From an uncultured Spirochaetaceae bacterium (lineage in GTDB: Bacteria; Spirochaetota; Spirochaetia; Treponematales; UBA12059): 25,864 nt of DNA. The stretch spans positions 1-25,864 of the forward strand of contig CALKWG010000381.1 in the NCBI GenBank assembly GCA_938004315.1. Reading direction: 5' to 3'. How positions within the stretch are numbered: the stretch's first letter is position 1; each line of letters starts with the position of its first letter. The notes under the pieces are model-generated. The model searched no databases, was not told the DNA's origin, and was given only the letters and a program-made list of their open reading frames with translations. Of this stretch, positions 8,647 through 17,825 are shown piece by piece. A program made the position numbers and the translations under genes.

Positions 8647-9453
8647 CTACGGCGCGAGCGCCTTGGCCAAGGCTTGCGCGTCGGCCAACATGGTCGGGTC
8701 GTCGAACCACGCGCGCGCCAAGGCCGCGTCTAAGAGCGCCTTCGCCTCCGAAGGATTGCCGAAGCGGGCGTTCAAGGTAGCCAGAGCCAGGACGTACTGG
8801 CCGCGGAGGGCGCCGGCGTCGTCGGCCCGAGCCGAACGCAGGGCTGCCAAGGCCTTACCGCCCGAGCCCTGCGCCAAGGCCGCGAGGGAGGCGTGCCAGG
8901 CCGAGCGGGCGGCGCCGGCGGCGTCGGCCGCCTCGTCGTAGAGCTCGCGGGCCTCCATATACCCGGTCCAGGCCTCGGCCAAGCGCCCCTCCTGGGCGGC
9001 CTTCCTCGCGGCCTCGAAGGCGGCTTCGGCCTCGACCCCGGCGCCCGCCCACATGAGCGAGCTCGCGTCGACCGATGAGCCGCGTACGCCGGCCACCGAC
9101 GACTCCTGCCTGGCCCCGGATTGGGCGAGCCGTTCGAGCTTCCCGGCCACGTTCGCCAGCGCGCTCGATTCCTGCCTAGGCCTTAAGAGGGTATCGACGA
9201 CGTAATTCCCCGCGCTGCTGATGACGACCGTGGCGCCGCCGCGCACGCTCAGCTCCAAGATGGCCTTGGCTCCGAGGCGCACGGTCTGGGCGGAATCGAA
9301 GGAGTCGCCGAAGTCCAGGTTCTTCCAGGTCCCGCCGCTTTGCACTTGTACGCTACCCTCGACGTAGCTGACGCTAACCGGGACGGCGGCGGCCGTCGCG
9401 ACCGCGTAAAGCGCTAGGATAATGGCGCCGAATGGCCGAATCACTTTTCTCAT
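8647..9453 (-). CDS. Exported FecR-domain protein with helical repeat tail
   Basis: The product has 268 residues. It begins with a signal peptide (~1-23, RKVIRPFGAIILALYAVATAAA). Residues ~25-130 form a FecR domain: VEGSVQVQSGGTWKNLDFGDSF, a beta-rich stretch, and the typical ending VAGVRGSS. Residues ~140-268 are Ala-rich helices with TPR/Sel1-like spacing. FecR domains occur in anti-sigma regulators, but stand-alone exported versions with TPR-like tails also exist and are presumably surface or periplasmic; no anti-sigma or transmembrane part is visible here. The start is supported by GAGGA about 6 bases upstream. The function is unknown. Confidence 0.8.
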   Translation of the reverse strand: MRKVIRPFGAIILALYAVATAAAVPVSVSYVEGSVQVQSGGTWKNLDFGDSFDSAQTVRLGAKAILELSVRGGATVVISSAGNYVVDTLLRPRQESSALANVAGKLERLAQSGARQESSVAGVRGSSVDASSLMWAGAGVEAEAAFEAARKAAQEGRLAEAWTGYMEARELYDEAADAAGAARSAWHASLAALAQGSGGKALAALRSARADDAGALRGQYVLALATLNARFGNPSEAKALLDAALARAWFDDPTMLADAQALAKALAP

Positions 9454-9742: not shown

Positions 9743-11065
9743 ATGAAAGCCGGACCGAGAAAGACGCCTCCCTGGTACGCCCTCGACCACGCGGCGGTTA
9801 TATACCCGCCGACGATGAACGACCGGGCGCCAGCGTTCTTTCGCCTACAGCTAACGCTCGCCGAGGACGTCAATCTCGTCGCCCTGAAGGCCGCGCTCGA
9901 GAAGCTGGCGCGTCGATTCCCGCTCTTCCACGTCGAGCTACGCAGGGGCGCCTTCTGGTACTATTTCGAGCGGAACGACGCCCCGCCGCAGCCCATGGCC
10001 GATTCGCTCTATCCCATGCAGAAGCCGGAGGCGGGCAAGAAAGGCGCGCACCTATACCGCGTCCGCGCCCACCATAATCGGCTCGCCCTCGAAGTCAGCC
10101 ACGTCATCTGCGACGGCTACGGCGGGATCGCCTTGTTTAAGGCGCTTACCGCCGAATACTTCAGGCGCTGCGGCCTGGCGGTGCCCTGCGAGGAGGGGGT
10201 GTTCGATTTAGACGCCGCCCCGTCGCCGGAGGAGTGGGAGGACTCGTTCGCCCGCTATAGCCGTCCCGGCCTGCCGCCGCCCCCGCCGCAGGACCCCTCA
10301 TGGCATATCCCCGGCGCCCTCTTGCCCCGCGGTACGATTCGGATCACGACCGGGCGGCTATCGGTCGCCCAGCTCCTGGCGAAGGCTAAGGGCTACGGCG
10401 TTACGGCGACCGTGTACTTGGCGGCGCATTACCTCGCCGTCCTTCAGGAGTATCAAGAGGATGAGGCTCTGGCGTCCGGTTCGTCGGGGGACGCCTGGCG
10501 TCGTAGGACTAAGCCTCTTAGGCTCGAGGTGCCGGCCGATATGCGCAGGATCTTTCCGTCCTCGACCCTGCGCAATTTCAGCCTGTTCCTCGAGCCGACG
10601 CTACGGCCGCGCCTACAGCGCTTCGAATTTCCCGATATCCTCAAGATCGTCGAGGCGCAGATGGCGCTCGGGCTTCAGCGAGGCGAGCTAGCCAGGATCA
10701 TCTCGCGTAACGTCGAGGCGGCTAGGAGCCCGCTCGTACGCGCCATGCCCCTGCCGATCAAGAACGCGTTCATGCGCGCGCTCAACGATATCTACGGCGA
10801 TAGGATGTTCTCCGGCGTCCTCTCTAACCTCGGGGCGTTTAAGCTGCCCGCTATCCTGCGGGACCGCGTGCTCGCCGTCGACCTCATCATCAACACCTCG
10901 CCGATCATTAAGCAGACCGTGGCGGCGATAAGCTACGGAGACGTCTTCTCTATTTCCATCGGGAGTCTTTGCGAAAGTTCTGAGTTCGAACGCAGGTTCC
11001 TAACGAGCTTGGTTAAGGACGGCCTCCGCGTGAAGGTCGAATCGAATATTCCTCCTCGGAGATGA
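9743..11065 (+). CDS. HxxxD-motif acyltransferase (alcohol acetyltransferase / condensation-domain superfamily)
   Basis: This 440-residue protein belongs to the chloramphenicol-acetyltransferase-like superfamily, which transfers acyl groups from CoA or carrier proteins. The catalytic motif is HVICDG (His120, Asp124, Gly125) in EVSHVICDGYGGIALF. The N-terminal half also has FRLQLTLAEDVNLVALKAALEKLARRFPLF, split as FRLQLTLAED and LKAALEKLARRFPLF, the familiar opening of condensation-type folds. The later SNLGAFKLP resembles the second structural motif of these enzymes. No membrane helix is obvious. It lies 13 bases before the zinc-ribbon membrane protein gene, and I recall such pairs in other anaerobes, so the two probably work together. 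The acyl donor and acceptor are unknown; a lipid or alcohol acceptor is only a guess. Confidence 0.78.
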   Translation: MKAGPRKTPPWYALDHAAVIYPPTMNDRAPAFFRLQLTLAEDVNLVALKAALEKLARRFPLFHVELRRGAFWYYFERNDAPPQPMADSLYPMQKPEAGKKGAHLYRVRAHHNRLALEVSHVICDGYGGIALFKALTAEYFRRCGLAVPCEEGVFDLDAAPSPEEWEDSFARYSRPGLPPPPPQDPSWHIPGALLPRGTIRITTGRLSVAQLLAKAKGYGVTATVYLAAHYLAVLQEYQEDEALASGSSGDAWRRRTKPLRLEVPADMRRIFPSSTLRNFSLFLEPTLRPRLQRFEFPDILKIVEAQMALGLQRGELARIISRNVEAARSPLVRAMPLPIKNAFMRALNDIYGDRMFSGVLSNLGAFKLPAILRDRVLAVDLIINTSPIIKQTVAAISYGDVFSISIGSLCESSEFERRFLTSLVKDGLRVKVESNIPPRR

Positions 11066-11078
11066 ACGGAGGCTGAAC

Positions 11079-11798
11079 ATGGCCTATTGCTATAAATGCG
11101 GCGTCGAGCTCGAGAGAGGCGCGCCGGCTTGCCCCCTGTGCGGAGCCTCCGTTCCTACCGATTGCGTGGAGCCGGAAACGCCCGCCCGCCCGGCCTATCC
11201 AAATTTCGTACATGATCCCGAGTACGGCGACGACTTAAGCGGCCCGGAGCGCCGTAGGATAGCCTTGGAGATCCTATCGCTAGCCTTGGGATTGGCCGCC
11301 GCCGCGTCCGTCGTCATCGACCTGGCCGACGGCGGGCTCGCCTGGTCCCGTTTCGTCGCGGCCGCCGTCTTAGGCGTCTGGGGCGTCTGCGCCGGGGTTA
11401 TCGCCCTATGGAAACGGCCCGGATGGGCCGCGGCGGCGGCGGCTTCCGCATGCTCGGCGGCGATGGTAGGCATCGACGCCGCCGGCGGGTGGCGGGGATG
11501 GTCGCTGGCCGTCGGCCTACCGATGGCGGCGGCGGTCGCGCTAGGCTCTTTCGCCGTCGGCGCGTCGGTCAGGAAGTCGAAACGGCGGGGATTGAACGTC
11601 GCCGGACATTCGCTCATCGCGGTAGCGGCCTCGCTCTGCATCCTGGAGCTCGCCCTCGATCTCTACGCTGACGGTCGGATCTTCCTTCGTTGGTCGCTCA
11701 TCACCGCCGCGTCCATCGTGCCGGTCTCGCTCCTCTTCTATTACATGCATGCCAGGCTCCTACGCGGGGCAGACCTCAGGAAATTCTTCAGGCTCTGA
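11079..11798 (+). CDS. Zinc-ribbon membrane protein (DUF6320-like)
   Basis: The 239-residue product starts with a zinc ribbon (Cys4, Cys7, Cys18, Cys21 in CYKCG and CPLCG). A polar linker with RPAYPNFVHDPEYGDDLS follows (split: RPAYPNFVHD, PEYGDDLS). From about residue 65 there are roughly six hydrophobic segments consistent with membrane helices. GGAGG precedes the ATG by about 7 bases, and the gene is 13 bases after the acyltransferase, so they are likely one operon. The assignment to DUF6320 is from memory of similar N-terminal ribbons next to acetyltransferases and is moderate. No enzymatic motif is visible, and the molecular function is unknown. Confidence 0.68.
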   Translation: MAYCYKCGVELERGAPACPLCGASVPTDCVEPETPARPAYPNFVHDPEYGDDLSGPERRRIALEILSLALGLAAAASVVIDLADGGLAWSRFVAAAVLGVWGVCAGVIALWKRPGWAAAAAASACSAAMVGIDAAGGWRGWSLAVGLPMAAAVALGSFAVGASVRKSKRRGLNVAGHSLIAVAASLCILELALDLYADGRIFLRWSLITAASIVPVSLLFYYMHARLLRGADLRKFFRL

Positions 11799-11812
11799 GC
11801 CTCGCCTCCCGC

Positions 11813-11842
11813 TTTCCGCGCCGCGGCCCTCCGGTGTACGAT
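11813..11842 (+). promoter_or_regulatory. Candidate leaderless promoter of hslO
   Basis: TTTCCG (11813-11818), an 18-base spacer and TACGAT (11837-11842) are followed by GCGGGC and the ATG at 11849. The arrangement copies that at 4092-4130, including the 18-base spacer and the six bases before ATG. Confidence 0.45.
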
Positions 11843-11848
11843 GCGGGC

Positions 11849-12769
11849 ATGATAGCGCCTGAACTACGCGACGAAGCCCAGAAGGCCCGGCTGGCCGGCA
11901 TGGAGCCCGACGGCCTGACCGTCTTCACCCTCGAGGGGGACTCTATACGGGGCGCCTTGGTCACGGGTACGGCCATGGTCAGCCTCATGGCCGCCGCCCA
12001 CGAGCTCGGCCCCCTAGAGACGATGACGCTCGGCCAGGCCTACCTGGCCGCGGCGCTCCTCTCGAGCACGATCAAGGGCGGCGACCGCCTGGCGCTACGC
12101 GCCGAGGGCTCGGGCCCGGCCGGCGGCTTCGCGGTGGAATGCAACGCGGCGGGCTCGGTGCGCGGCCGGCTGTTCAACGCCCCCTTCGACCTATCGGCGC
12201 TCGGGGAGCGCTTCGAAAGCTCGGCCATCCTGGGGCCCGGCTCCATCTCTATCACGCGTTACCCCGAAGGCCGCGACATGGAGCCGGTCACCGGCACGGC
12301 CGCCGCACGGACGGGGCGCTTGGCGGAAGACCTAGCCTATTTTTTTCATATCTCGGAGCAGCTGCGCACGAGCTTCAGCTTGAGCGTGCATTTCGACGAC
12401 GCGGGGCGGCCCGCCGGCGCGGCCGGCCTCTATCTGCAGGCGCTGCCCTTCGCCTCGGTCGAGGCGCTCGATAGGGTGGAGCGCCTGGTCTACGGCCTTC
12501 CGAGCCTGGGAGAGTCGGCGGCCCGCGGCATGGCGCGCCGCGCGATCGCCATGCAGTCATTCGCGTTCTTCGACCTCAATCTCCTCGGCGAGGGGCGGGT
12601 CGCCTTCGACTGCCCCTGCGAGCGCGACCGTGTGCGCGGCTTTCTGGCCGCCTTGCCTCCCGATGAGCTCGCCGACTTGAAGGCCAACGGTCCCTTCCCC
12701 GTCGAGCTCCGCTGCCATAACTGCAATAGCGTGTATCGATACGAAAAACGAGAAATAGAGGCGCTATAA
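11849..12769 (+). CDS. hslO: Hsp33 redox-regulated chaperonin
   Basis: Hsp33 is a cytoplasmic holdase chaperone switched on by oxidation. The 306 residues match the family length. The redox switch is complete near the C-terminus: Cys255 and Cys257 (CPC) plus Cys289 and Cys292 (CHNC) bind zinc when reduced. The N-terminal fold includes TLGQAYLAAALLSSTIKGGDR (split: TLGQAYLAAALL, STIKGGDR), characteristic of the family. The reading frame is open further upstream, to 11690, but that part overlaps the zinc-ribbon gene and has no family similarity. The ATG at 11849 restores the normal N-terminus and has a -10 box six bases before it. Neighbouring an anaerobic hydrogenase operon, it fits protection when oxygen enters. 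Confidence 0.95.
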   Translation: MIAPELRDEAQKARLAGMEPDGLTVFTLEGDSIRGALVTGTAMVSLMAAAHELGPLETMTLGQAYLAAALLSSTIKGGDRLALRAEGSGPAGGFAVECNAAGSVRGRLFNAPFDLSALGERFESSAILGPGSISITRYPEGRDMEPVTGTAAARTGRLAEDLAYFFHISEQLRTSFSLSVHFDDAGRPAGAAGLYLQALPFASVEALDRVERLVYGLPSLGESAARGMARRAIAMQSFAFFDLNLLGEGRVAFDCPCERDRVRGFLAALPPDELADLKANGPFPVELRCHNCNSVYRYEKREIEAL

Positions 12770-12782
12770 AGGGGTTAACTAC

Positions 12783-12830
12783 TTGAAATTATCGATATAA
12801 AAATATATATTAAGGCGACGCGAAGGAGGT
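12783..12830 (+). promoter_or_regulatory. Strong promoter and Shine-Dalgarno of the hydrogenase operon
   Basis: TTGAAA (12783-12788), a 17-base spacer and TATATT (12806-12811) form a near-consensus sigma-70 promoter in an AT-rich island. The spacer holds the palindrome TATCGATA (12790-12797). AAGGAGGT (12823-12830) is an almost perfect Shine-Dalgarno four bases before the ATG at 12834. GTTAAC (12774-12779) just upstream might be half of a redox-regulator site, but no full Rex or FNR operator is seen. Confidence 0.75.
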
Positions 12831-12833
12831 CCT

Positions 12834-13094
12834 ATGGACGGCGATCGCCACACGATCCAGATATGTATGGGTAGCTCCTGCTTTTCCCGGGGCAACGGCC
12901 TCAACGCCGAGCTTATCCAGCGGCTCATCGATATGGGCGCGCTGGAAGGCGAGTGGCGCATGGCCGAGCTGACCGGGACGCTCTGCGAGGGGCGCTGCAA
13001 GGACGGCCCGGTCATAGTCGTCGACGGCGTCGTGCATACCCGCGTCTCGCCGCCGATGCTGCAGGATCTTTTGCGGGCGAAGCGCATAGCGTGA
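12834..13094 (+). CDS. Thioredoxin-fold [2Fe-2S] ferredoxin, first gene of the hydrogenase operon
   Basis: This 86-residue protein resembles the [2Fe-2S] domain of NuoE/HndA subunits. It has the four cysteines in the pattern CxxxxC and CxxxC: Cys11, Cys16, Cys51 and Cys55 (ICMGSSCF, LCEGRCKDGPV). It likely carries electrons to or from the hydrogenase proteins encoded next to it in the cytoplasm. It starts behind the operon promoter with a strong Shine-Dalgarno and is followed after 7 bases by the sensory hydrogenase. A second, different member of the family lies at 16056-16328, so each hydrogenase gene of the operon is preceded by one small ferredoxin gene. Confidence 0.88.
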   Translation: MDGDRHTIQICMGSSCFSRGNGLNAELIQRLIDMGALEGEWRMAELTGTLCEGRCKDGPVIVVDGVVHTRVSPPMLQDLLRAKRIA

Positions 13095-13101
13095 GGAAGG
13101 C

Positions 13102-14835
13102 GTGAACGTACTAAACCCGATTTTTACCGAGAAGGCAGCGTGCCAGGATTGCTATAAGTGCCTGCGCGAATGCGCGGTCAAGGCTATCAAGGTCGAGGGC
13201 GGCCGCGCCGCCGTGGTACCCGAGCTCTGCGTGCTCTGCGGGCACTGCGTCGACATCTGCCCCGCCGGCGCCAAGAAGGTCCGAGACGACTTAGGGCGCG
13301 CTCAGCTCCTCGCCGCCTCGGGCGGCGCGGTCGTATCGCTAGCGCCGTCCTTCGTCTCAGAATTCCCCGGACTCGACCCGGCCAAGCTGGTCGCGGCGAT
13401 ACGCGCGCTCGGCTTTATCGCCGTCTCCGAGACCGCCCGCGGCGCCGACCTCGTGGCTAGGCAGGTCGCCCAGGCCCTTCGCGACGACGACGCGGCGGCC
13501 GATCCGTCCGGCCGCGTTTTCATCTCTTCGGCTTGTCCTACGGTCGTCGAGTACCTTAAGAAGTATCGCCCGAGGCTCGGCTCCCGGGTAACGGCCATGT
13601 ATTCGCCGCTCCTCGCCCACGCCGCCGAGCTACGCGACGGCCCCCGGCCGGCGTCGTCGGTGGTCTTCATTGGCCCTTGCATCTCCAAGAAGCGCGAGGC
13701 CGACCTCTTCTCCGGCCTCGTCGACGTCGCCATCGACTTCTCCGACCTCAGGCGTTGGATGGCCGAGCGCGGCGTCGATCCCGAGGCCATGAGCCCCGGG
13801 GCGGACGACCGCTTCAGCCCGGGCCGCGCCGCCAAAGGCGCGCTCTATCCTATGGACGGGGGCATGATAGCCGCGGTCAAGCGCTATCCCGTACCCGAAT
13901 CGGCCAGGTTCATGGCCTTCTCGGGGCTCGACGAGATCGACCGCGCCCTTTCAGGGCTCGACGAGGCCGCCTTGGACGGACCGGTGTTCCTCGAGCTCCT
14001 GGCATGCCCCGGCGGCTGCGTGAACGGCCCCCGCGTCTCCGGCAGGGCGGGGACCATAGCCAAACGCCTGGCCGTGCAGGCCTACGCCGACGGGGCGCTC
14101 GAGCGAACCGAGGCCGAGACGCGGTCCCTCGAGCTAGCTTGGGAACCTAAGCCTATAGACGAAGCCAAGCCCGACCCGACGGCCCTGGCGGCGGTGCTTA
14201 AGTCAACCGGCAAGCAGGGGCCGGACGACGAGCTCAACTGCGGCGGCTGCGGCTACGACGCTTGCCGAGACTTCGCCGCGGCGGTGCTGGCGGGCAAGGC
14301 GGAGCGCGATATGTGCGTATCCTATATGCGCAGCCTAGCCCAGAAGAAGGCCAACGGGCTCATCGCCGCCATGCCCTCCGGCGTGGTCATCGTCGACAAG
14401 GACCTGAAGGTCGTCGAATGCAATGAGAACTTCGCCAAGCTCTTAGGCGAGGAGGCCGAGCGGCTCTGGGAGGCCAAGCCGGGCCTGGCCGGCGCCGAAC
14501 TCCATAAGCTCCTGCCCTTCGGCCGCTACTTCATGGACGCCTTGGCGGGGGCCCCGCCCTTGGATAAGGACCTGCGCCTGGGGCGGCGCATCCTGCACGC
14601 CAAGATCTTCGGGATCGAGGCGGGATCGTACGCCGGCGGCGTGATCCAGGACGTCACCGCGCCCTGGGTGCGTAAGGACCGCGTCGTCTCGCAGGCGCGC
14701 AAGGTCATCAGCAAGAACCTGGCCGTGGTGCAGAAGATAGCCTATCTCCTCGGCGAGAACGCCGCCGAGACGGAGGCCACGCTGAGCTCCATCATCGAGT
14801 CCTTCGACGAGGGCGAGGAGGGGGGCGAGCGGTGA
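13102..14835 (+). CDS. Sensory-type [FeFe]-hydrogenase with PAS domain (HydS-like)
   Basis: The protein has 577 residues and starts at GTG with GAGGAAGG just before it. Order: two ferredoxin-type [4Fe-4S] motifs (Cys14/17/20/24 and Cys43/46/49/53); the H-cluster domain (~75-330) with SSACP (L1, Cys145), GPCISKKRE (L2, Cys193) and ACPGGC (L3, Cys302, Cys306); an extra Cys cluster CGGCGYDAC...C (Cys380/383/388/405), probably another [4Fe-4S]; and a PAS domain (~415-520) with a helical tail. All H-cluster Cys ligands are present, but Ala144 replaces the proton-relay Cys that directly precedes the first ligand in catalytic enzymes. That swap is known in slow, sensory hydrogenases such as HydS. 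No kinase domain follows; the output is presumably the phosphatase whose gene overlaps by 4 bases. Confidence 0.88.
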   Translation: MNVLNPIFTEKAACQDCYKCLRECAVKAIKVEGGRAAVVPELCVLCGHCVDICPAGAKKVRDDLGRAQLLAASGGAVVSLAPSFVSEFPGLDPAKLVAAIRALGFIAVSETARGADLVARQVAQALRDDDAAADPSGRVFISSACPTVVEYLKKYRPRLGSRVTAMYSPLLAHAAELRDGPRPASSVVFIGPCISKKREADLFSGLVDVAIDFSDLRRWMAERGVDPEAMSPGADDRFSPGRAAKGALYPMDGGMIAAVKRYPVPESARFMAFSGLDEIDRALSGLDEAALDGPVFLELLACPGGCVNGPRVSGRAGTIAKRLAVQAYADGALERTEAETRSLELAWEPKPIDEAKPDPTALAAVLKSTGKQGPDDELNCGGCGYDACRDFAAAVLAGKAERDMCVSYMRSLAQKKANGLIAAMPSGVVIVDKDLKVVECNENFAKLLGEEAERLWEAKPGLAGAELHKLLPFGRYFMDALAGAPPLDKDLRLGRRILHAKIFGIEAGSYAGGVIQDVTAPWVRKDRVVSQARKVISKNLAVVQKIAYLLGENAAETEATLSSIIESFDEGEEGGER

Positions 14836-16046
14836 GCGGCCCGACCTTCGTCGAGCTCGGCCACTACCAGGTTCGCAAGCGCGGGCAGGGGGCCGACGGC
14901 GACGCCTTCCTATCGCGTAAGGCGAGCGACGGGCGCATCATCTCCGCGCTCTCGGACGGGCTGGGCTCCGGCGTCAAGGCGGGGGTGCTGGCCACGCTCA
15001 CCGCGAGCATGGCGGTGAAATTCGTCTCCGAGGACATCCCCATACGGCGCGCCGCCGGCATCATCATGAAGACGCTGCCGGTGTGCTCCGAGCGCCGCAT
15101 CAGTTACGCGACCTTCACCATCGTGGACATCGATAGCCAGGATACGGTGAAGGTCGTGGAGTACGACAACCCCTCGTACATACTCATACGCGAGCGCACC
15201 CAGGTCGAGCCCATCAAGGGCGAGATCAGGGTGACGAGGGCCGGCCGCGGCAGGGCCTCGGCCGCGCGCGGCGCGGTCGGCCGCGAGGCGATCATGCGCT
15301 ATTCAGAATTCCAAGCCCGGCCCGGCGACCGCCTCGTGTTCTTCTCCGACGGCGTGACGCAGGCGGGCATGGGGACCCGGGCCCATCCCCTAGGCTGGGG
15401 AGCCCCGGCGGTACAGGCCTACGCCCTGGGCCTCGTCGAGGAGAAGCCCGACATCTCGGCGCGCGAGCTGGCCAGGCGCATGGTCCAGGAGGCCGAGGCC
15501 GTGGACGCGTACGCGCCGAAAGACGACATCAGCTGCGCCGTGGTGTACTTCCGCAGGCCCAGGCGGCTCCTCGTCATGACCGGTCCCTCGATCGACCCCT
15601 CCCGCGACGCGGAGATGGCGGCGATCTTCGATCGCTACGAGGGGCGCAAGCTCCTCTGCGGCGGCACGACGGCCGCCATCGTGGCCCGCGAGCTCGGGCG
15701 GACGGTCACGATAGTCCTGGAGCGCGTCGCCCGCGACGTGCCGCCGGCCTCGACGATGGAGGGCGCCGACCTCGTGACCGAGGGCATCATCACCCTAGGC
15801 AAGGCGGCCGAGCTCCTGGAGCGCGGCGAGTCGGCCGTCAGGGCCGAACGCGGCCCGGCCGCGCGGGCGGCCGAGCTCTTCCTGGACTCCGACCACATCG
15901 AATTCGTCGTGGGCACCAAGATCAACGAGGCCCACCAGGATCCCAGCATGCCCGTGGAGCTGGAGATACGCAGGAATATCGTCAAGCGCGTCGCGGCTAC
16001 CTTGAGGGAGACCTATCTCAAGGAAGTCGAGCTGCGCTTCATTTAG
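14832..16046 (+). CDS. SpoIIE/PP2C-type serine phosphatase with a C-terminal domain of unknown function
   Basis: The 404-residue product has an N-terminal PP2C-like (SpoIIE) phosphatase domain (~1-240). Metal-binding motifs are SDGLGSG (Asp42), FFSDGVTQAG (Asp173) and DDISCAVVYF (Asp231/Asp232). Members remove phosphate from Ser/Thr of regulatory proteins. Residues ~245-404 (LVMTGPSIDPSRD, LCGGTTAAIVARELGR, FVVGTKINEAHQDP) form a separate domain I do not recognise, which is probably a partner-binding or sensing part. The gene starts at GTG, overlapping the sensory hydrogenase by 4 bases, so the two are translationally coupled. Similar phosphatases occur in hfs-type hydrogenase clusters. The target protein is unknown. 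Confidence 0.87.
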   Translation: MSGPTFVELGHYQVRKRGQGADGDAFLSRKASDGRIISALSDGLGSGVKAGVLATLTASMAVKFVSEDIPIRRAAGIIMKTLPVCSERRISYATFTIVDIDSQDTVKVVEYDNPSYILIRERTQVEPIKGEIRVTRAGRGRASAARGAVGREAIMRYSEFQARPGDRLVFFSDGVTQAGMGTRAHPLGWGAPAVQAYALGLVEEKPDISARELARRMVQEAEAVDAYAPKDDISCAVVYFRRPRRLLVMTGPSIDPSRDAEMAAIFDRYEGRKLLCGGTTAAIVARELGRTVTIVLERVARDVPPASTMEGADLVTEGIITLGKAAELLERGESAVRAERGPAARAAELFLDSDHIEFVVGTKINEAHQDPSMPVELEIRRNIVKRVAATLRETYLKEVELRFI

Positions 16047-16055
16047 GAGGCCGGG

Positions 16056-16328
16056 ATGGACGGCGAAAAACTCAAGGTTATCATTTGTTCAGGTACCGCC
16101 TGCTTCGTCATGGGCGGCTCCGAGCTCCTCCTCCTTGAGGACGAGCTGCCGGAGGCCTGGCGCGGGCGCGTGTCCGTGGAGGCCGCGCCTTGCCTGGGCT
16201 CCTGCAAGGACCGCTCATGCGGGCGGGCCCCCTTCGTCAAGGTCGGCGTAGAGGATTTGGCCGGCGCAACTATGCCGGCGCTCCTGGCCCTTATAGGCCG
16301 GAAGCTCGGCGAAACGCTCGGAGGTTAA
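16056..16328 (+). CDS. Second thioredoxin-fold [2Fe-2S] ferredoxin, with an extra Cys
   Basis: The protein has 90 residues. The cluster ligands are Cys11 and Cys16 (ICSGTACF) and Cys46 and Cys50 (PCLGSCKD). A fifth cysteine, Cys55 (CGRAPF), lies close to the second pair, which the first ferredoxin of the operon lacks. The product is expected to pass electrons to the catalytic hydrogenase six bases downstream. AGGAGG stands about 6 bases before the ATG. It shares the fold and general layout, but not close sequence, with the protein at 12834-13094. Confidence 0.85.
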   Translation: MDGEKLKVIICSGTACFVMGGSELLLLEDELPEAWRGRVSVEAAPCLGSCKDRSCGRAPFVKVGVEDLAGATMPALLALIGRKLGETLGG

Positions 16329-16334
16329 GGCTTT

Positions 16335-17771
16335 ATGCATTATAATAATAACGCCTCCTTGGTAAAACGCGAGCTCTTGATCCGCATGATACGCCTGGAG
16401 CTCGAGGGCCGGCTCGAAGGCGGCATAGACCGCGTCCCCTACGAGATGACCTGCGAGCCCGGCTACCAACCGATCCGCGTCTCGGTCTACCATGATAGAT
16501 CCATCTTGAAGAGCCGCATGGTGGCGCGCCTGGGCTTCGCCGTCGAGGGCTACGTGGACGACGGCACGAGCCTGGCCCCCCTCGTGCGCGCGGCGGCCGA
16601 GCGCCCCGCTCCCGAAGGCCCCATCCTGACCGTGCTCGACGAGGCGTGCAACGCCTGCGTGAAAAGCCAGTTCCTGGTAACCAACGCCTGCCAGGGCTGC
16701 CTGGCCAGGCCCTGCGTCATGAACTGCCCCAAGAAGGCCGTGCGCATGGTCGACGACAAGGCCGTCATCGATAAAGAGCTCTGCGTCAACTGCGGCATCT
16801 GCCAGAACGTCTGCCCCTTCCACGCGATCATTAAGATCCCCGTGCCCTGCGAGGAGGCCTGCCCCGTCGGCGCCATAAGCAAAGACGAGGAGGGAAAGGA
16901 GCGCATCGACTATAGCAAGTGCGTCTTCTGCGGCGCCTGCATGCGCGAATGCCCCTTCGGGGCGATGATGGACCGTTCTCAGGTACTGGACGTACTGCGC
17001 CGAAAGTGCGAGGGCGCCAAGCTCGCCGCCCTGTACGCGCCGGCCGTGGCCGGCCAGTTCAGGGCGCCCTTAGGCAAGCTGGTAGCGGCGCTTAAGAAGG
17101 CCGGCTTCGACGCCGTCTATGAGGTGGCCCGCGGCGCCGACATAACGGCGGAGAAAGAAGCGCATGAGCTTGCGGAGCGCCTTGAAAAGGGCGAGCCCTT
17201 CATGACGACGAGCTGCTGCCCCGCCTACGTGGAGACGGTCAGGAAGCACGTCCCGGCCCTCGCGCCGCGCGTGTCGGATACCCGCACGCCCATGCACTAT
17301 ACCGCCGCGCTGGCCGCCGCCGAGCGGCCCGAGTGCCTACGCGTCTTTATCGGCCCCTGCCTCGCCAAGCGCAAGGAAGGCATAGACGACCCCCTCGTCG
17401 ACTACGTCATTTCGGCTGAGGAGCTCGGCGCCCTCTTCGTGGCCATGGGCATCGAGCTCGGCGAGGAGGCGGAGGAGATCGTCGAAGCCCCCGCCGGCCA
17501 AGGCGGGCGATCCTTCGCCTGGTCGGGCGGCGTCGCCGCGGCGGTCGGCGCGCGCCTGCCCGCCGGCGTCCCCTTCAAGCCGGCCAAGATAGACGGCCTT
17601 AGCAAAGAAGGCATGAAGACCCTGAGGGCCTGGGCCGACGGCGCGCACGAGGGCAACCTCCTAGAGGTCATGGCCTGCCAGGGCGGCTGCGTCGCCGGCC
17701 CCTCGGTGATAGCCAACCCCAAGGTGGCGCTCATGCAGCTTAAGAAGATTGCCGAGGCGAGCGGGAACTAA
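16335..17771 (+). CDS. [FeFe]-hydrogenase, catalytic type
   Basis: This cytoplasmic enzyme interconverts protons and H2. The 478 residues carry many ferredoxin-type cysteines: Cys119/122/127/131, Cys150/153/156/160, Cys172/176 and Cys196/199/202/206, enough for several [4Fe-4S] clusters, plus Cys105/Cys108 before them. The H-cluster motifs are TSCCP (Cys294 is the proton relay, Cys295 the ligand), IGPCLAKRKE (Cys342) and MACQGGC (Cys448, Cys452). Unlike the sensory paralogue, it keeps the relay Cys. GPC in place of the MPC of standard group A enzymes, and TSCCPAY, suggest the group B lineage (tentative). There is no N-terminal [2Fe-2S] domain, so the small ferredoxin before it may supply that function. 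No hydEFG maturase gene is in the window. The last gene of the operon, it is followed by a strong terminator. Confidence 0.92.
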   Translation: MHYNNNASLVKRELLIRMIRLELEGRLEGGIDRVPYEMTCEPGYQPIRVSVYHDRSILKSRMVARLGFAVEGYVDDGTSLAPLVRAAAERPAPEGPILTVLDEACNACVKSQFLVTNACQGCLARPCVMNCPKKAVRMVDDKAVIDKELCVNCGICQNVCPFHAIIKIPVPCEEACPVGAISKDEEGKERIDYSKCVFCGACMRECPFGAMMDRSQVLDVLRRKCEGAKLAALYAPAVAGQFRAPLGKLVAALKKAGFDAVYEVARGADITAEKEAHELAERLEKGEPFMTTSCCPAYVETVRKHVPALAPRVSDTRTPMHYTAALAAAERPECLRVFIGPCLAKRKEGIDDPLVDYVISAEELGALFVAMGIELGEEAEEIVEAPAGQGGRSFAWSGGVAAAVGARLPAGVPFKPAKIDGLSKEGMKTLRAWADGAHEGNLLEVMACQGGCVAGPSVIANPKVALMQLKKIAEASGN

Positions 17772-17794
17772 GGCCCTTGCCGAGCGGTCTATCA

Positions 17795-17825
17795 CGGGAG
17801 ATCCTTCGGGCTCTCCCGTTTTTTT
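17795..17825 (+). terminator. Strong intrinsic terminator of the hydrogenase operon
   Basis: CGGGAGA (17795-17801) pairs with TCTCCCG (17812-17818), with CC-TTCG-GG inside the loop (a stable UUCG tetraloop), and seven T follow at 17819-17825. It lies 23 bases after the stop codon of the catalytic hydrogenase. Confidence 0.93.

What the first reader, a model, noticed from the sequence alone, without database searches (positions are those of the whole stretch)
12834..17771. Five-gene operon coupling a sensory [FeFe]-hydrogenase to a SpoIIE phosphatase and a catalytic hydrogenase
Two hydrogenases in one operon differ at the proton-relay position: Ala144 in the PAS-fused protein and Cys294 in the catalytic one. 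The PAS protein has no kinase or output domain but is translationally coupled (4-base overlap) to a PP2C-type phosphatase. I infer an H2 or redox sensing chain that acts by dephosphorylation. The signalling partner of such phosphatases is, to my knowledge, not established.
Basis: partly seen in the sequence, partly recalled or inferred. Interest (0 to 1): 0.8.

Follow-up and report, generated by a model that had tools for sequence, protein, structure and literature searches.

The report
Hydrogen-sensing operon with attached phosphatase
A spirochaete operon pairs a presumed hydrogen-sensing hydrogenase with a protein phosphatase and a working hydrogenase; this arrangement is already known from other bacteria, but what the phosphatase acts on, and what its unnamed, highly conserved second half does, is still open.

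Summary
In detail: five co-directional genes (12834-17771) encode a [2Fe-2S] protein, a PAS-fused [FeFe]-hydrogenase (HydS), a SpoIIE-type phosphatase overlapping it by 4 bases, a second [2Fe-2S] protein and a group B [FeFe]-hydrogenase; Ala144 and Cys294 are as stated. Added here: a HydS match lies directly upstream in 80 of the 80 best phosphatase loci, about ten phyla by record title, and in 19 of 23 further ones. In two spirochaetes the sensor lacks the hydrogenase part but keeps PAS, the conserved tail and the 4-base overlap, so PAS plus tail is the unit tied to the phosphatase. Phosphatase Asp residues are invariant (83 of 83); its C-terminal domain has no Pfam family. The target stays unknown: no STAS gene nearby, no tested kinase family in every genome. 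New member of a known kind.

The parts
12783..12811 (+). promoter-like site TTGAAA-17-TATATT before the operon (consensus match only)
   Evidence: 10 of 12 matches; 3 sites found in the region, shuffles mean 0.8
12823..12829 (+). AAGGAGG ribosome-binding-like sequence before gene 1
   Evidence: read by eye from the sequence
12834..13094 (+). gene 1, 86 aa, thioredoxin-like [2Fe-2S] protein (Cys 11, 16, 51, 55)
   Evidence: PF01257, 37 bits; Cys positions; a match found upstream of HydS in 64 of 71 loci with more than 2.1 kb upstream
13102..14835 (+). gene 2, 577 aa, HydS: PAS-fused sensory-type [FeFe]-hydrogenase, Ala144 at the proton-relay position
   Evidence: tree
13330..14031 (+). HydS H-domain (residues 77-310); H-cluster cysteines 145, 193, 302, 306
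   Evidence: PF02906; Cys kept in 70, 70, 67 and 70 of 70
14233..14319 (+). HydS extra Fe-S cluster domain (residues 378-406)
   Evidence: PF04060; Cys 380, 383, 388, 405 in 70 of 70
14344..14685 (+). HydS PAS region (residues 415-528)
   Evidence: PAS_8 PF13188 matches residues 420-457 above cut-off; borders set by me
14686..14808 (+). HydS C-terminal tail (residues 529-569), proposed output or docking segment
   Evidence: mean top-residue frequency 0.70, against 0.68 for PF04060, 0.54 PAS, 0.52 H-domain; 70 sequences, borders set by me; kept in H-domain-less sensors. Helical nature not predicted here.
14832..16046 (+). gene 3, 404 aa, SpoIIE-type PPM phosphatase plus C-terminal domain; overlaps gene 2 by 4 bases
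14832..15554 (+). phosphatase PPM part (residues 1-241), Asp 24, 42, 173, 231, 232
   Evidence: identical in 83 of 83 sequences
15555..16043 (+). phosphatase C-terminal domain (residues 242-404), no Pfam family, conserved loop around IN.AHQDP
16056..16328 (+). gene 4, 90 aa, thioredoxin-like [2Fe-2S] protein (Cys 11, 16, 46, 50, 55)
   Evidence: PF01257 at E 3e-4, 21.0 bits against cut-off 24.8; Cys positions; a match after the phosphatase in 26 of 59 loci with more than 2 kb downstream
16335..17771 (+). gene 5, 478 aa, catalytic-type group B [FeFe]-hydrogenase, Cys294
   Evidence: TIGR04105 507.5 bits, cut-off 450; tree
17794..17825 (+). hairpin plus T run, probable terminator
   Evidence: -16.6 kcal/mol, z -3.29, 0 of 200 shuffles as stable; not flagged by the pattern scan

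Best explanation
It is a phosphatase-linked (HydDB group C3-type) sensory [FeFe]-hydrogenase module in one operon with the group B [FeFe]-hydrogenase that it probably helps to regulate. Proposed working: HydS reads H2, or the redox state of the ferredoxin pool coupled to it, at an H-cluster whose usual relay Cys is Ala, so turnover is slow (inferred from published TmHydS work). Electrons or a shape change pass through the Fe-S clusters, perhaps with the [2Fe-2S] protein of gene 1, to the PAS domain and the conserved tail. The tail gates the separately encoded PPM phosphatase in a complex. The phosphatase then dephosphorylates a Ser/Thr-phosphorylated regulator encoded elsewhere, which adjusts hydrogenase and fermentation genes. 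Shown here: anatomy, gene linkage, conservation, intact active-site residues, and that PAS plus tail stay with the phosphatase when the hydrogenase part is absent. Inferred: signal, complex, direction of control, target. Deletions in Thermoanaerobacterium suggest that HydS restrains the phosphatase, but one hfsC frameshift in an evolved strain does not fit simply.
For: A HydS match directly upstream on the same strand in 80 of 80 loci fetched with the phosphatase alone and in 19 of 23 further loci. In L084 and L085 a 177- and 186-aa PAS protein without H-domain, with the same tail, lies between a [2Fe-2S]-type gene and the phosphatase with a 4-base overlap. The tail is as conserved as the Fe-S domain and more than the H-domain. 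Asp 24, 42, 173, 231, 232 identical in 83 of 83; PPM fold. H-cluster Cys kept. HydS-type and HydB rows lie on different sides of a 100/99 branch. R. albus 7 has rex, adhE, phosphotransferase, two [2Fe-2S] genes, HydS, phosphatase, group B hydrogenase in a row, 30-39% identical. PMC5707799 (passages): hfsA or hfsB deletion raises ethanol yield and adhE transcript, and wild-type hfsC and hfsD were needed. PMC6776011 (passages) proposes the same chain for R. albus.
Against: No test of H2 response, binding or phosphatase activity. Four of the 23 further loci show no HydS match: two have the PAS-only sensor, one contig starts at the phosphatase, and L109 has an unrelated 218-aa ORF instead. A phosphatase of this family also stands without HydS within 8 kb in Acetoanaerobium noterae. 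The long-protein search found no HydS-phosphatase fusion (4 hits among 7,995 scored candidates). HydS-phosphatase distance correlation (0.875) does not exceed HydS-HydB (0.875) in 27 sets. PMC5707799 notes that deleting hfsA lowers hfsB, C and D expression, and its whole-operon contrast does not separate hfsC from hfsD; PMC4898469 lists an hfsC frameshift among evolved ethanol strains (M0699).
Confidence: 0.6

Rival explanations
1. Redox sensor rather than H2 sensor: HydS and the [2Fe-2S] protein report ferredoxin or NAD(P)H state through the Fe-S clusters, and the H-cluster is only an electron sink or relay. The phosphatase output is the same.
For: Two natural sensors lack the H-domain altogether but keep the [2Fe-2S]-type gene, PAS, tail and phosphatase. 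Two [2Fe-2S] proteins here and several Fe-S motifs in HydS. The relay residue varies (A 46, N 10, C 4, others 10 of 70). In T. saccharolyticum hfsA (putative ferredoxin) deletion acts like hfsB deletion, though it also lowers hfsB expression.
Against: H-cluster cysteines are kept in 67-70 of 70 HydS. PMC10055695 (passages) cites high H2 affinity for the related TamHydS.
Confidence: 0.25
2. The phosphatase acts directly on the hydrogenases or fermentation enzymes of the pathway (post-translational control), not on a transcription regulator.
For: No conserved regulator gene was found next to the module. A stand-alone C-terminal domain is encoded directly upstream of, and overlapping, a flavoprotein and group A-type hydrogenase gene pair in one genome. 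[quoted passage not shown]
Against: The stand-alone domain was found in 1 of 247 spirochaete genomes (with a distant query). adhE transcript rises two- and threefold in hfsA and hfsB deletions, which needs a transcriptional arm.
Confidence: 0.15
3. HydS is an accessory subunit of the catalytic hydrogenase complex, and its link to the phosphatase is only operon membership.
For: PMC13277313 (passages) raises that HfsABC may form a functional hydrogenase without HfsD. HydS and HydB distances correlate as strongly as HydS and phosphatase.
Against: No HydB match directly downstream in 33 of 59 loci with more than 2 kb downstream, while a HydS match is upstream in 80 of 80. PAS-tail proteins without H-domain still precede the phosphatase.
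Confidence: 0.08

Closest known systems
HydDB [FeFe]-hydrogenase group C3, phosphatase-linked (putative)
   Same: Sensory [FeFe]-hydrogenase encoded with a serine/threonine phosphatase; proposed H2 sensing through the phosphatase (PMC5037454, passages)
   Different: HydDB's classifier was not run; placement rests on domains, gene linkage and the R. albus homologue. PMC11406978 (passages) reports group C3 members with a PAS domain and others with a histidine kinase domain, so C3 by sequence is not always phosphatase-linked.
hydS / hydA2 locus of Ruminococcus albus 7 (pRUMAL01)
   Same: [2Fe-2S] gene(s), HydS, phosphatase, group B hydrogenase in this order; HydS gene overlaps the phosphatase gene by 8 bases; three large proteins 30-39% identical over most of their length; same C-terminal domain and tail
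   Different: Both [2Fe-2S] genes lie upstream of HydS; rex, adhE and an APH-family phosphotransferase gene are added; HydS has Cys at the relay position; Pfam did not report its PAS domain at E 0.001; PMC6776011 calls the hydrogenase of this cluster group A1, while NCBIfam scores it group B (577 against 158 bits)
hfsABCD of Thermoanaerobacterium saccharolyticum
   Same: Putative ferredoxin, PAS-[FeFe]-hydrogenase, serine phosphatase, [FeFe]-hydrogenase in one operon (PMC11837493, PMC5707799, PMC4898469; passages)
   Different: Sequences not held here; the link is the published equation HydS = HfsB, HydA2 = HfsD. [quoted passage not shown]
RsbP of Bacillus subtilis (PAS, coiled coil, PPM phosphatase in one chain)
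   Same: PAS domain coupled to a PPM phosphatase (start of the abstract of PMC3183031 in the listing)
   Different: There sensor and phosphatase are one protein and the target RsbV is known (recalled); here they are two proteins and no STAS ORF was found in the 80 loci

Membership tests
[FeFe]-hydrogenase group C3 (phosphatase-linked) | H-domain with conserved H-cluster ligands | tested here: met
   PF02906 and Cys 145, 193, 302, 306
[FeFe]-hydrogenase group C3 (phosphatase-linked) | PAS domain in the same chain, no catalytic output domain | tested here: met
   PAS_8 23.1 bits against cut-off 21.8; no kinase, cyclase or chemotaxis domain listed
[FeFe]-hydrogenase group C3 (phosphatase-linked) | encoded with a serine/threonine phosphatase | tested here: met
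   4-base overlap; 80 of 80 best loci
[FeFe]-hydrogenase group C3 (phosphatase-linked) | phylogenetic or HydDB placement in group C3 | tested here: inconclusive
   separated from HydB (group B) and group A-like rows, but no reference set for C1, C2 or D and no HydDB classifier was available
[FeFe]-hydrogenase group C3 (phosphatase-linked) | H2 sensing | not testable with these tools
   needs biochemistry; 'Undetermined role' in HydDB too
Group B monomeric [FeFe]-hydrogenase (gene 5) | TIGR04105 score above cut-off | tested here: met
   507.5 bits against 450
Group B monomeric [FeFe]-hydrogenase (gene 5) | proton-relay Cys present | tested here: met
   Cys294
SpoIIE/RsbU-type PPM phosphatase (gene 3) | PPM fold and conserved Asp residues | tested here: met
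SpoIIE/RsbU-type PPM phosphatase (gene 3) | acts on a STAS anti-anti-sigma protein with an RsbW-type kinase | tested here: inconclusive
   0 STAS hits among 1,098 ORFs of the 80 loci. Elsewhere in genomes with the phosphatase: PF13581 over cut-off in 35 of 39, STAS in 38 of 39; PF13581 also hits histidine kinases. G018 has no PF13581 match and one STAS match, in a 568-aa frame; G014 has no STAS match. Completeness not given.
RsbP-like PAS-phosphatase | PAS and phosphatase in one chain | tested here: not met
   two genes; fusion search without a HydS-phosphatase chain

The most novel reading that the evidence does not exclude
The true unit is an interchangeable output cassette: [2Fe-2S] protein, PAS plus tail, and a phosphatase with its own new C-terminal domain. 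The sensory hydrogenase is only one possible input; where it is missing, the [2Fe-2S] protein and PAS report redox state, and the cassette still serves hydrogenase genes. The C-terminal domain (G361 and N365 in 83 of 83, H368 in 82 of 83) would be the part that docks on the target, possibly a hydrogenase itself, since its one stand-alone copy overlaps bifurcating-hydrogenase-type genes.
Probability: 0.25. Interest if true: 0.55.

Novelty: new member of a known kind. Interest (0 to 1): 0.35.

Why it matters
H2 level helps decide whether fermenters make ethanol, acetate or H2. Phosphatase-linked sensors occur here in loci of about ten phyla by record title, yet the passages that I saw name no signalling target. 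The comparison gives direct tests: a conserved tail, an invariant active site, an unannotated domain, and natural sensors without the hydrogenase part, which separate sensing from output.

Tried and rejected
Fusion search: HydS joined to the phosphatase as query, scored on the phosphatase part; 4 long proteins of 7,995 scored candidates (capped list). By eye P0245 is phosphatase plus a group B-like hydrogenase, P0243 phosphatase plus a group A-like end, P0244 phosphatase plus an unrelated part; P0242 is an arginyl-tRNA-synthetase-type piece plus phosphatase by its Pfam list (its sequence was not read). They look like deletions or assembly chimeras, none is HydS-phosphatase, and I do not use them as evidence.

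The 727-aa ORF in L025 looked like a fusion, but its first part is out-of-frame translation of the upstream gene.

Known kinases and targets as universal partners: PF13581 over cut-off 35 of 39, STAS 38 of 39 (40 of 80 loci given, L059 not held). In 12 genomes picked by me from these (low counts, not random): STAS_2 7, HprK 5 matched and 4 over cut-off, Pkinase 8. None is in all. Completeness is not given, so absences are weak.

Neighbours: only the 9 most frequent non-module clusters were given to Pfam; rarer neighbours were not annotated. Histidine kinases occur in 9 of 80 loci at varied distance and strand. Profiles built from 13 STAS and 11 HATPase stretches found 0 STAS and 5 weak HATPase ORFs (E 3e-7 to 9e-4) among 1,098 ORFs.

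R. albus APH-family phosphotransferase as a general counter-kinase: no homologue among the ORFs of the 80 loci at E 0.001.

Mirror-tree test: not informative. PADLOC: no hits for the five proteins. Rfam: none at gathering scores.

Full report
What is there. The five genes are real and in one direction: gene 1 12834-13094 (86 aa, PF01257), gene 2 13102-14835 (577 aa, HydS: 4Fe-4S, PF02906, PF04060, PAS_8), gene 3 14832-16046 (404 aa, PF07228), gene 4 16056-16328 (90 aa, PF01257 just below cut-off), gene 5 16335-17771 (478 aa). Genes 2 and 3 share GTGA. Gene 5 passes the NCBIfam model for group B monomeric [FeFe]-hydrogenases with 507.5 bits against 450. Ala144 and Cys294 are as reported. A promoter-like site precedes gene 1 (consensus only) and a stable hairpin with a T run follows gene 5. 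No whole genome is held for the window. In the H-domain tree the nearest row to each of the two hydrogenases is a MAG named Gracilinema caldarium (Breznakiellaceae, Spirochaetota).

Relatives. I searched public genomes with a phosphatase alignment alone. By tblastn a HydS match (over 50 bits) lies directly upstream on the same strand in 80 of 80; in contigs that end early it is only a part of HydS. A gene 1 match was found in 64 of 71 loci with more than 2.1 kb upstream; gene 4 and gene 5 matches each follow in 26 of 59 loci with more than 2 kb downstream. By title the records are Spirochaetes, Bacteroidota, Acidobacteria, Synergistaceae, Riflebacteria, Nitrospirae, Verrucomicrobia, Planctomycetota, Delta-proteobacteria, Myxococcales, Fibrobacter and Erysipelotrichia (MAG names may be wrong). 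Complex1_51K-type genes of bifurcating hydrogenases occur in 20 of 80 loci, HydF-type genes in 9 and radical SAM genes in 9 (clusters; one representative each scanned). Gene 1-HydS-phosphatase is thus the recurring unit, and the group B hydrogenase one of several clients.

Further copies and the telling exceptions. In 23 further loci (19 from a spirochaete search with a distant query; 4 second copies) a HydS match adjoins the phosphatase in 19 (only about 0.8 kb upstream is held for the first 19 loci, so the match is to the HydS end). Of the other four, L107 starts at the phosphatase and cannot be judged. L109, a second copy in a Bacteroidales genome, has a 218-aa ORF without Pfam match in front. 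L084 and L085 are the interesting ones: between a [2Fe-2S]-type gene and the phosphatase lies a 177- or 186-aa protein that is PAS plus tail with no hydrogenase domain, overlapping the phosphatase by 4 bases, followed by NuoE- and NuoF-type genes. A profile of the HydS PAS-plus-tail region matches both (72 bits), and so does the tail alone (38 bits); the tail profile hits 80 of 1,098 ORFs of the 80 loci, none without a HydS match. So what stays with the phosphatase is PAS plus tail, and the hydrogenase part can be absent.

Trees. An H-domain tree of 127 rows (129 collected; L004_HydS and L011_HydS dropped because their domain limits were too wide) has HydB rows in one group (98/97), the group A-like rows in one group (100/100), and all HydS-type rows on one side of a 100/99 branch. 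HydS of Fibrobacter, Delta-proteobacteria, Myxococcales, Verrucomicrobia, Bacteroidota, Nitrospirae and Acidobacteria share one 12-row group (96/89), which suggests transfer between phyla or mis-binned contigs. No reference set for groups C1, C2 and D was at hand.

HydS. In 70 aligned HydS (window plus 69 loci; 11 loci dropped by my 540-640 aa length filter or because the frame was cut or broken) the H-cluster cysteines are kept in 70, 70, 67 and 70, the PF04060 cysteines in 70 of 70. The relay position is A 46, N 10, C 4, T 3, L 2, V 2, M 2, H 1. PMC10055695 reports alanine in about 43% and cysteine in 17% of sensory enzymes (passages). Mean top-residue frequency is 0.70 in the tail (529-569), 0.68 in PF04060, 0.62 in the 4Fe-4S part, 0.54 in PAS, 0.52 in the H-domain and 0.38 in the linker. 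R. albus HydS keeps the tail. A conserved tail at the end of a sensor that has no output domain, directly before the phosphatase gene, is what a docking or output segment would look like; this is inference, and its helical nature was not predicted.

Targets. Among 1,098 ORFs of the 80 loci a STAS profile finds none and an RsbW-type ATPase profile five weak ones; histidine kinases occur in 9 loci at varied positions; rare neighbours were not annotated. In genomes that carry the phosphatase, PF13581 passes its cut-off in 35 of 39 and STAS in 38 of 39, but both are common families. In 12 genomes picked by me HprK passes in 4, Pkinase in 8, STAS_2 in 7. No tested family is in all, with the caveat that most are MAGs of unstated completeness. 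In R. albus an APH-family phosphotransferase gene lies in the same row, but no homologue lies in the 80 loci.

Comparison with the known. HydDB lists C3 as 'Phosphatase-linked (putative)', 'Undetermined role. May sense H2 and regulate processes via serine/threonine phosphatases' (PMC5037454, passages). R. albus 7 plasmid pRUMAL01 carries rex, adhE, phosphotransferase, two [2Fe-2S] genes, HydS, phosphatase and the hydrogenase in a row; the three large proteins are 31% (phosphatase), 30% (HydS) and 39% (hydrogenase) identical to the window's. PMC6776011 (passages) reports 111-fold down-regulation of that cluster in co-culture and proposes H2 sensing through a phosphatase that 'may modify downstream regulators'. 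In T. saccharolyticum, PMC5707799 (passages) deleted each hfs gene: loss of hfsA and/or hfsB gives high ethanol and two- to threefold more adhE transcript, loss of hfsC and/or hfsD does not, and deletion of the whole operon had not raised ethanol substantially. The simplest reading is that HydS restrains the phosphatase. Against a simple reading: hfsA deletion lowers expression of the genes behind it, hfsC and hfsD are not separated by the whole-operon contrast, and an evolved ethanol strain carries an hfsC frameshift with an hfsD change (PMC4898469). HfsC has been called a histidine kinase and a serine phosphatase, and the partner of R. albus HydS a protein kinase (citing Zheng et al. 2014, not held); the R. 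albus sequence says phosphatase. Ballor et al. 2012 on treponeme hydrogen sensors was seen only in reference lists. The listings of searches, open-licence papers only, showed no paper on a HydS-phosphatase interaction.

Verdict. Open are the target and the C-terminal domain. The H-domain-less sensors are the most useful new fact.

Noticed in passing
L085:3-1977 and L084:1306-3282: Sensors of 186 and 177 aa made of PAS plus the HydS-type tail, without hydrogenase domain, between a [2Fe-2S]-type gene and the phosphatase, next to NuoE- and NuoF-type genes.
   Followed up: partly
L109:2051-3906: Second phosphatase copy with the C-terminal domain in a Bacteroidales genome, preceded by a 218-aa ORF without Pfam match instead of HydS.
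   Followed up: partly
L058:1539-3506 (-): HydS-like protein fused to a histidine kinase (PF00512, PF02518, no PAS match) with bifurcating-hydrogenase-type genes, divergent from the gene 1-HydS-phosphatase block; several other Bacteroidales loci have a similar-sized gene there, not scanned. One locus may carry an H2-linked kinase and an H2-linked phosphatase.
   Followed up: partly
L081:4077-4523 (-): Stand-alone copy of the phosphatase C-terminal domain overlapping a flavoprotein gene next to a group A-type hydrogenase.
   Followed up: partly
L104:7998-9179: Phosphatase with the C-terminal domain in Acetoanaerobium noterae without a HydS match within 8 kb; the record is called a plasmid but is 2.6 Mb.
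   Followed up: partly
L052:12902-15798, L070:4380-7276, L059:11216-14542: A second HydS-phosphatase pair in tandem with the first (only the L052 pair was scanned).
   Followed up: no
L102:6040-6789: APH-family phosphotransferase gene between adhE and the HydS block in R. albus, a possible counter-kinase; PMC6776011 calls the cluster's hydrogenase group A1 while NCBIfam scores it group B.
   Followed up: partly
L005, L027, L031, L052: Rex-like genes within the fetched loci of 4 of 80 (E below 1e-28).
   Followed up: no
8647-9453 (-) and 9743-11065 (+): Two ORFs of 268 and 440 aa without a Pfam match at E 0.001.
   Followed up: no
11690-12769: Hsp33 (redox-controlled chaperone, recalled) lies directly upstream of the operon on the same strand; its ORF as listed overlaps the preceding DUF6320 gene, so the true start is probably later.
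   Followed up: no
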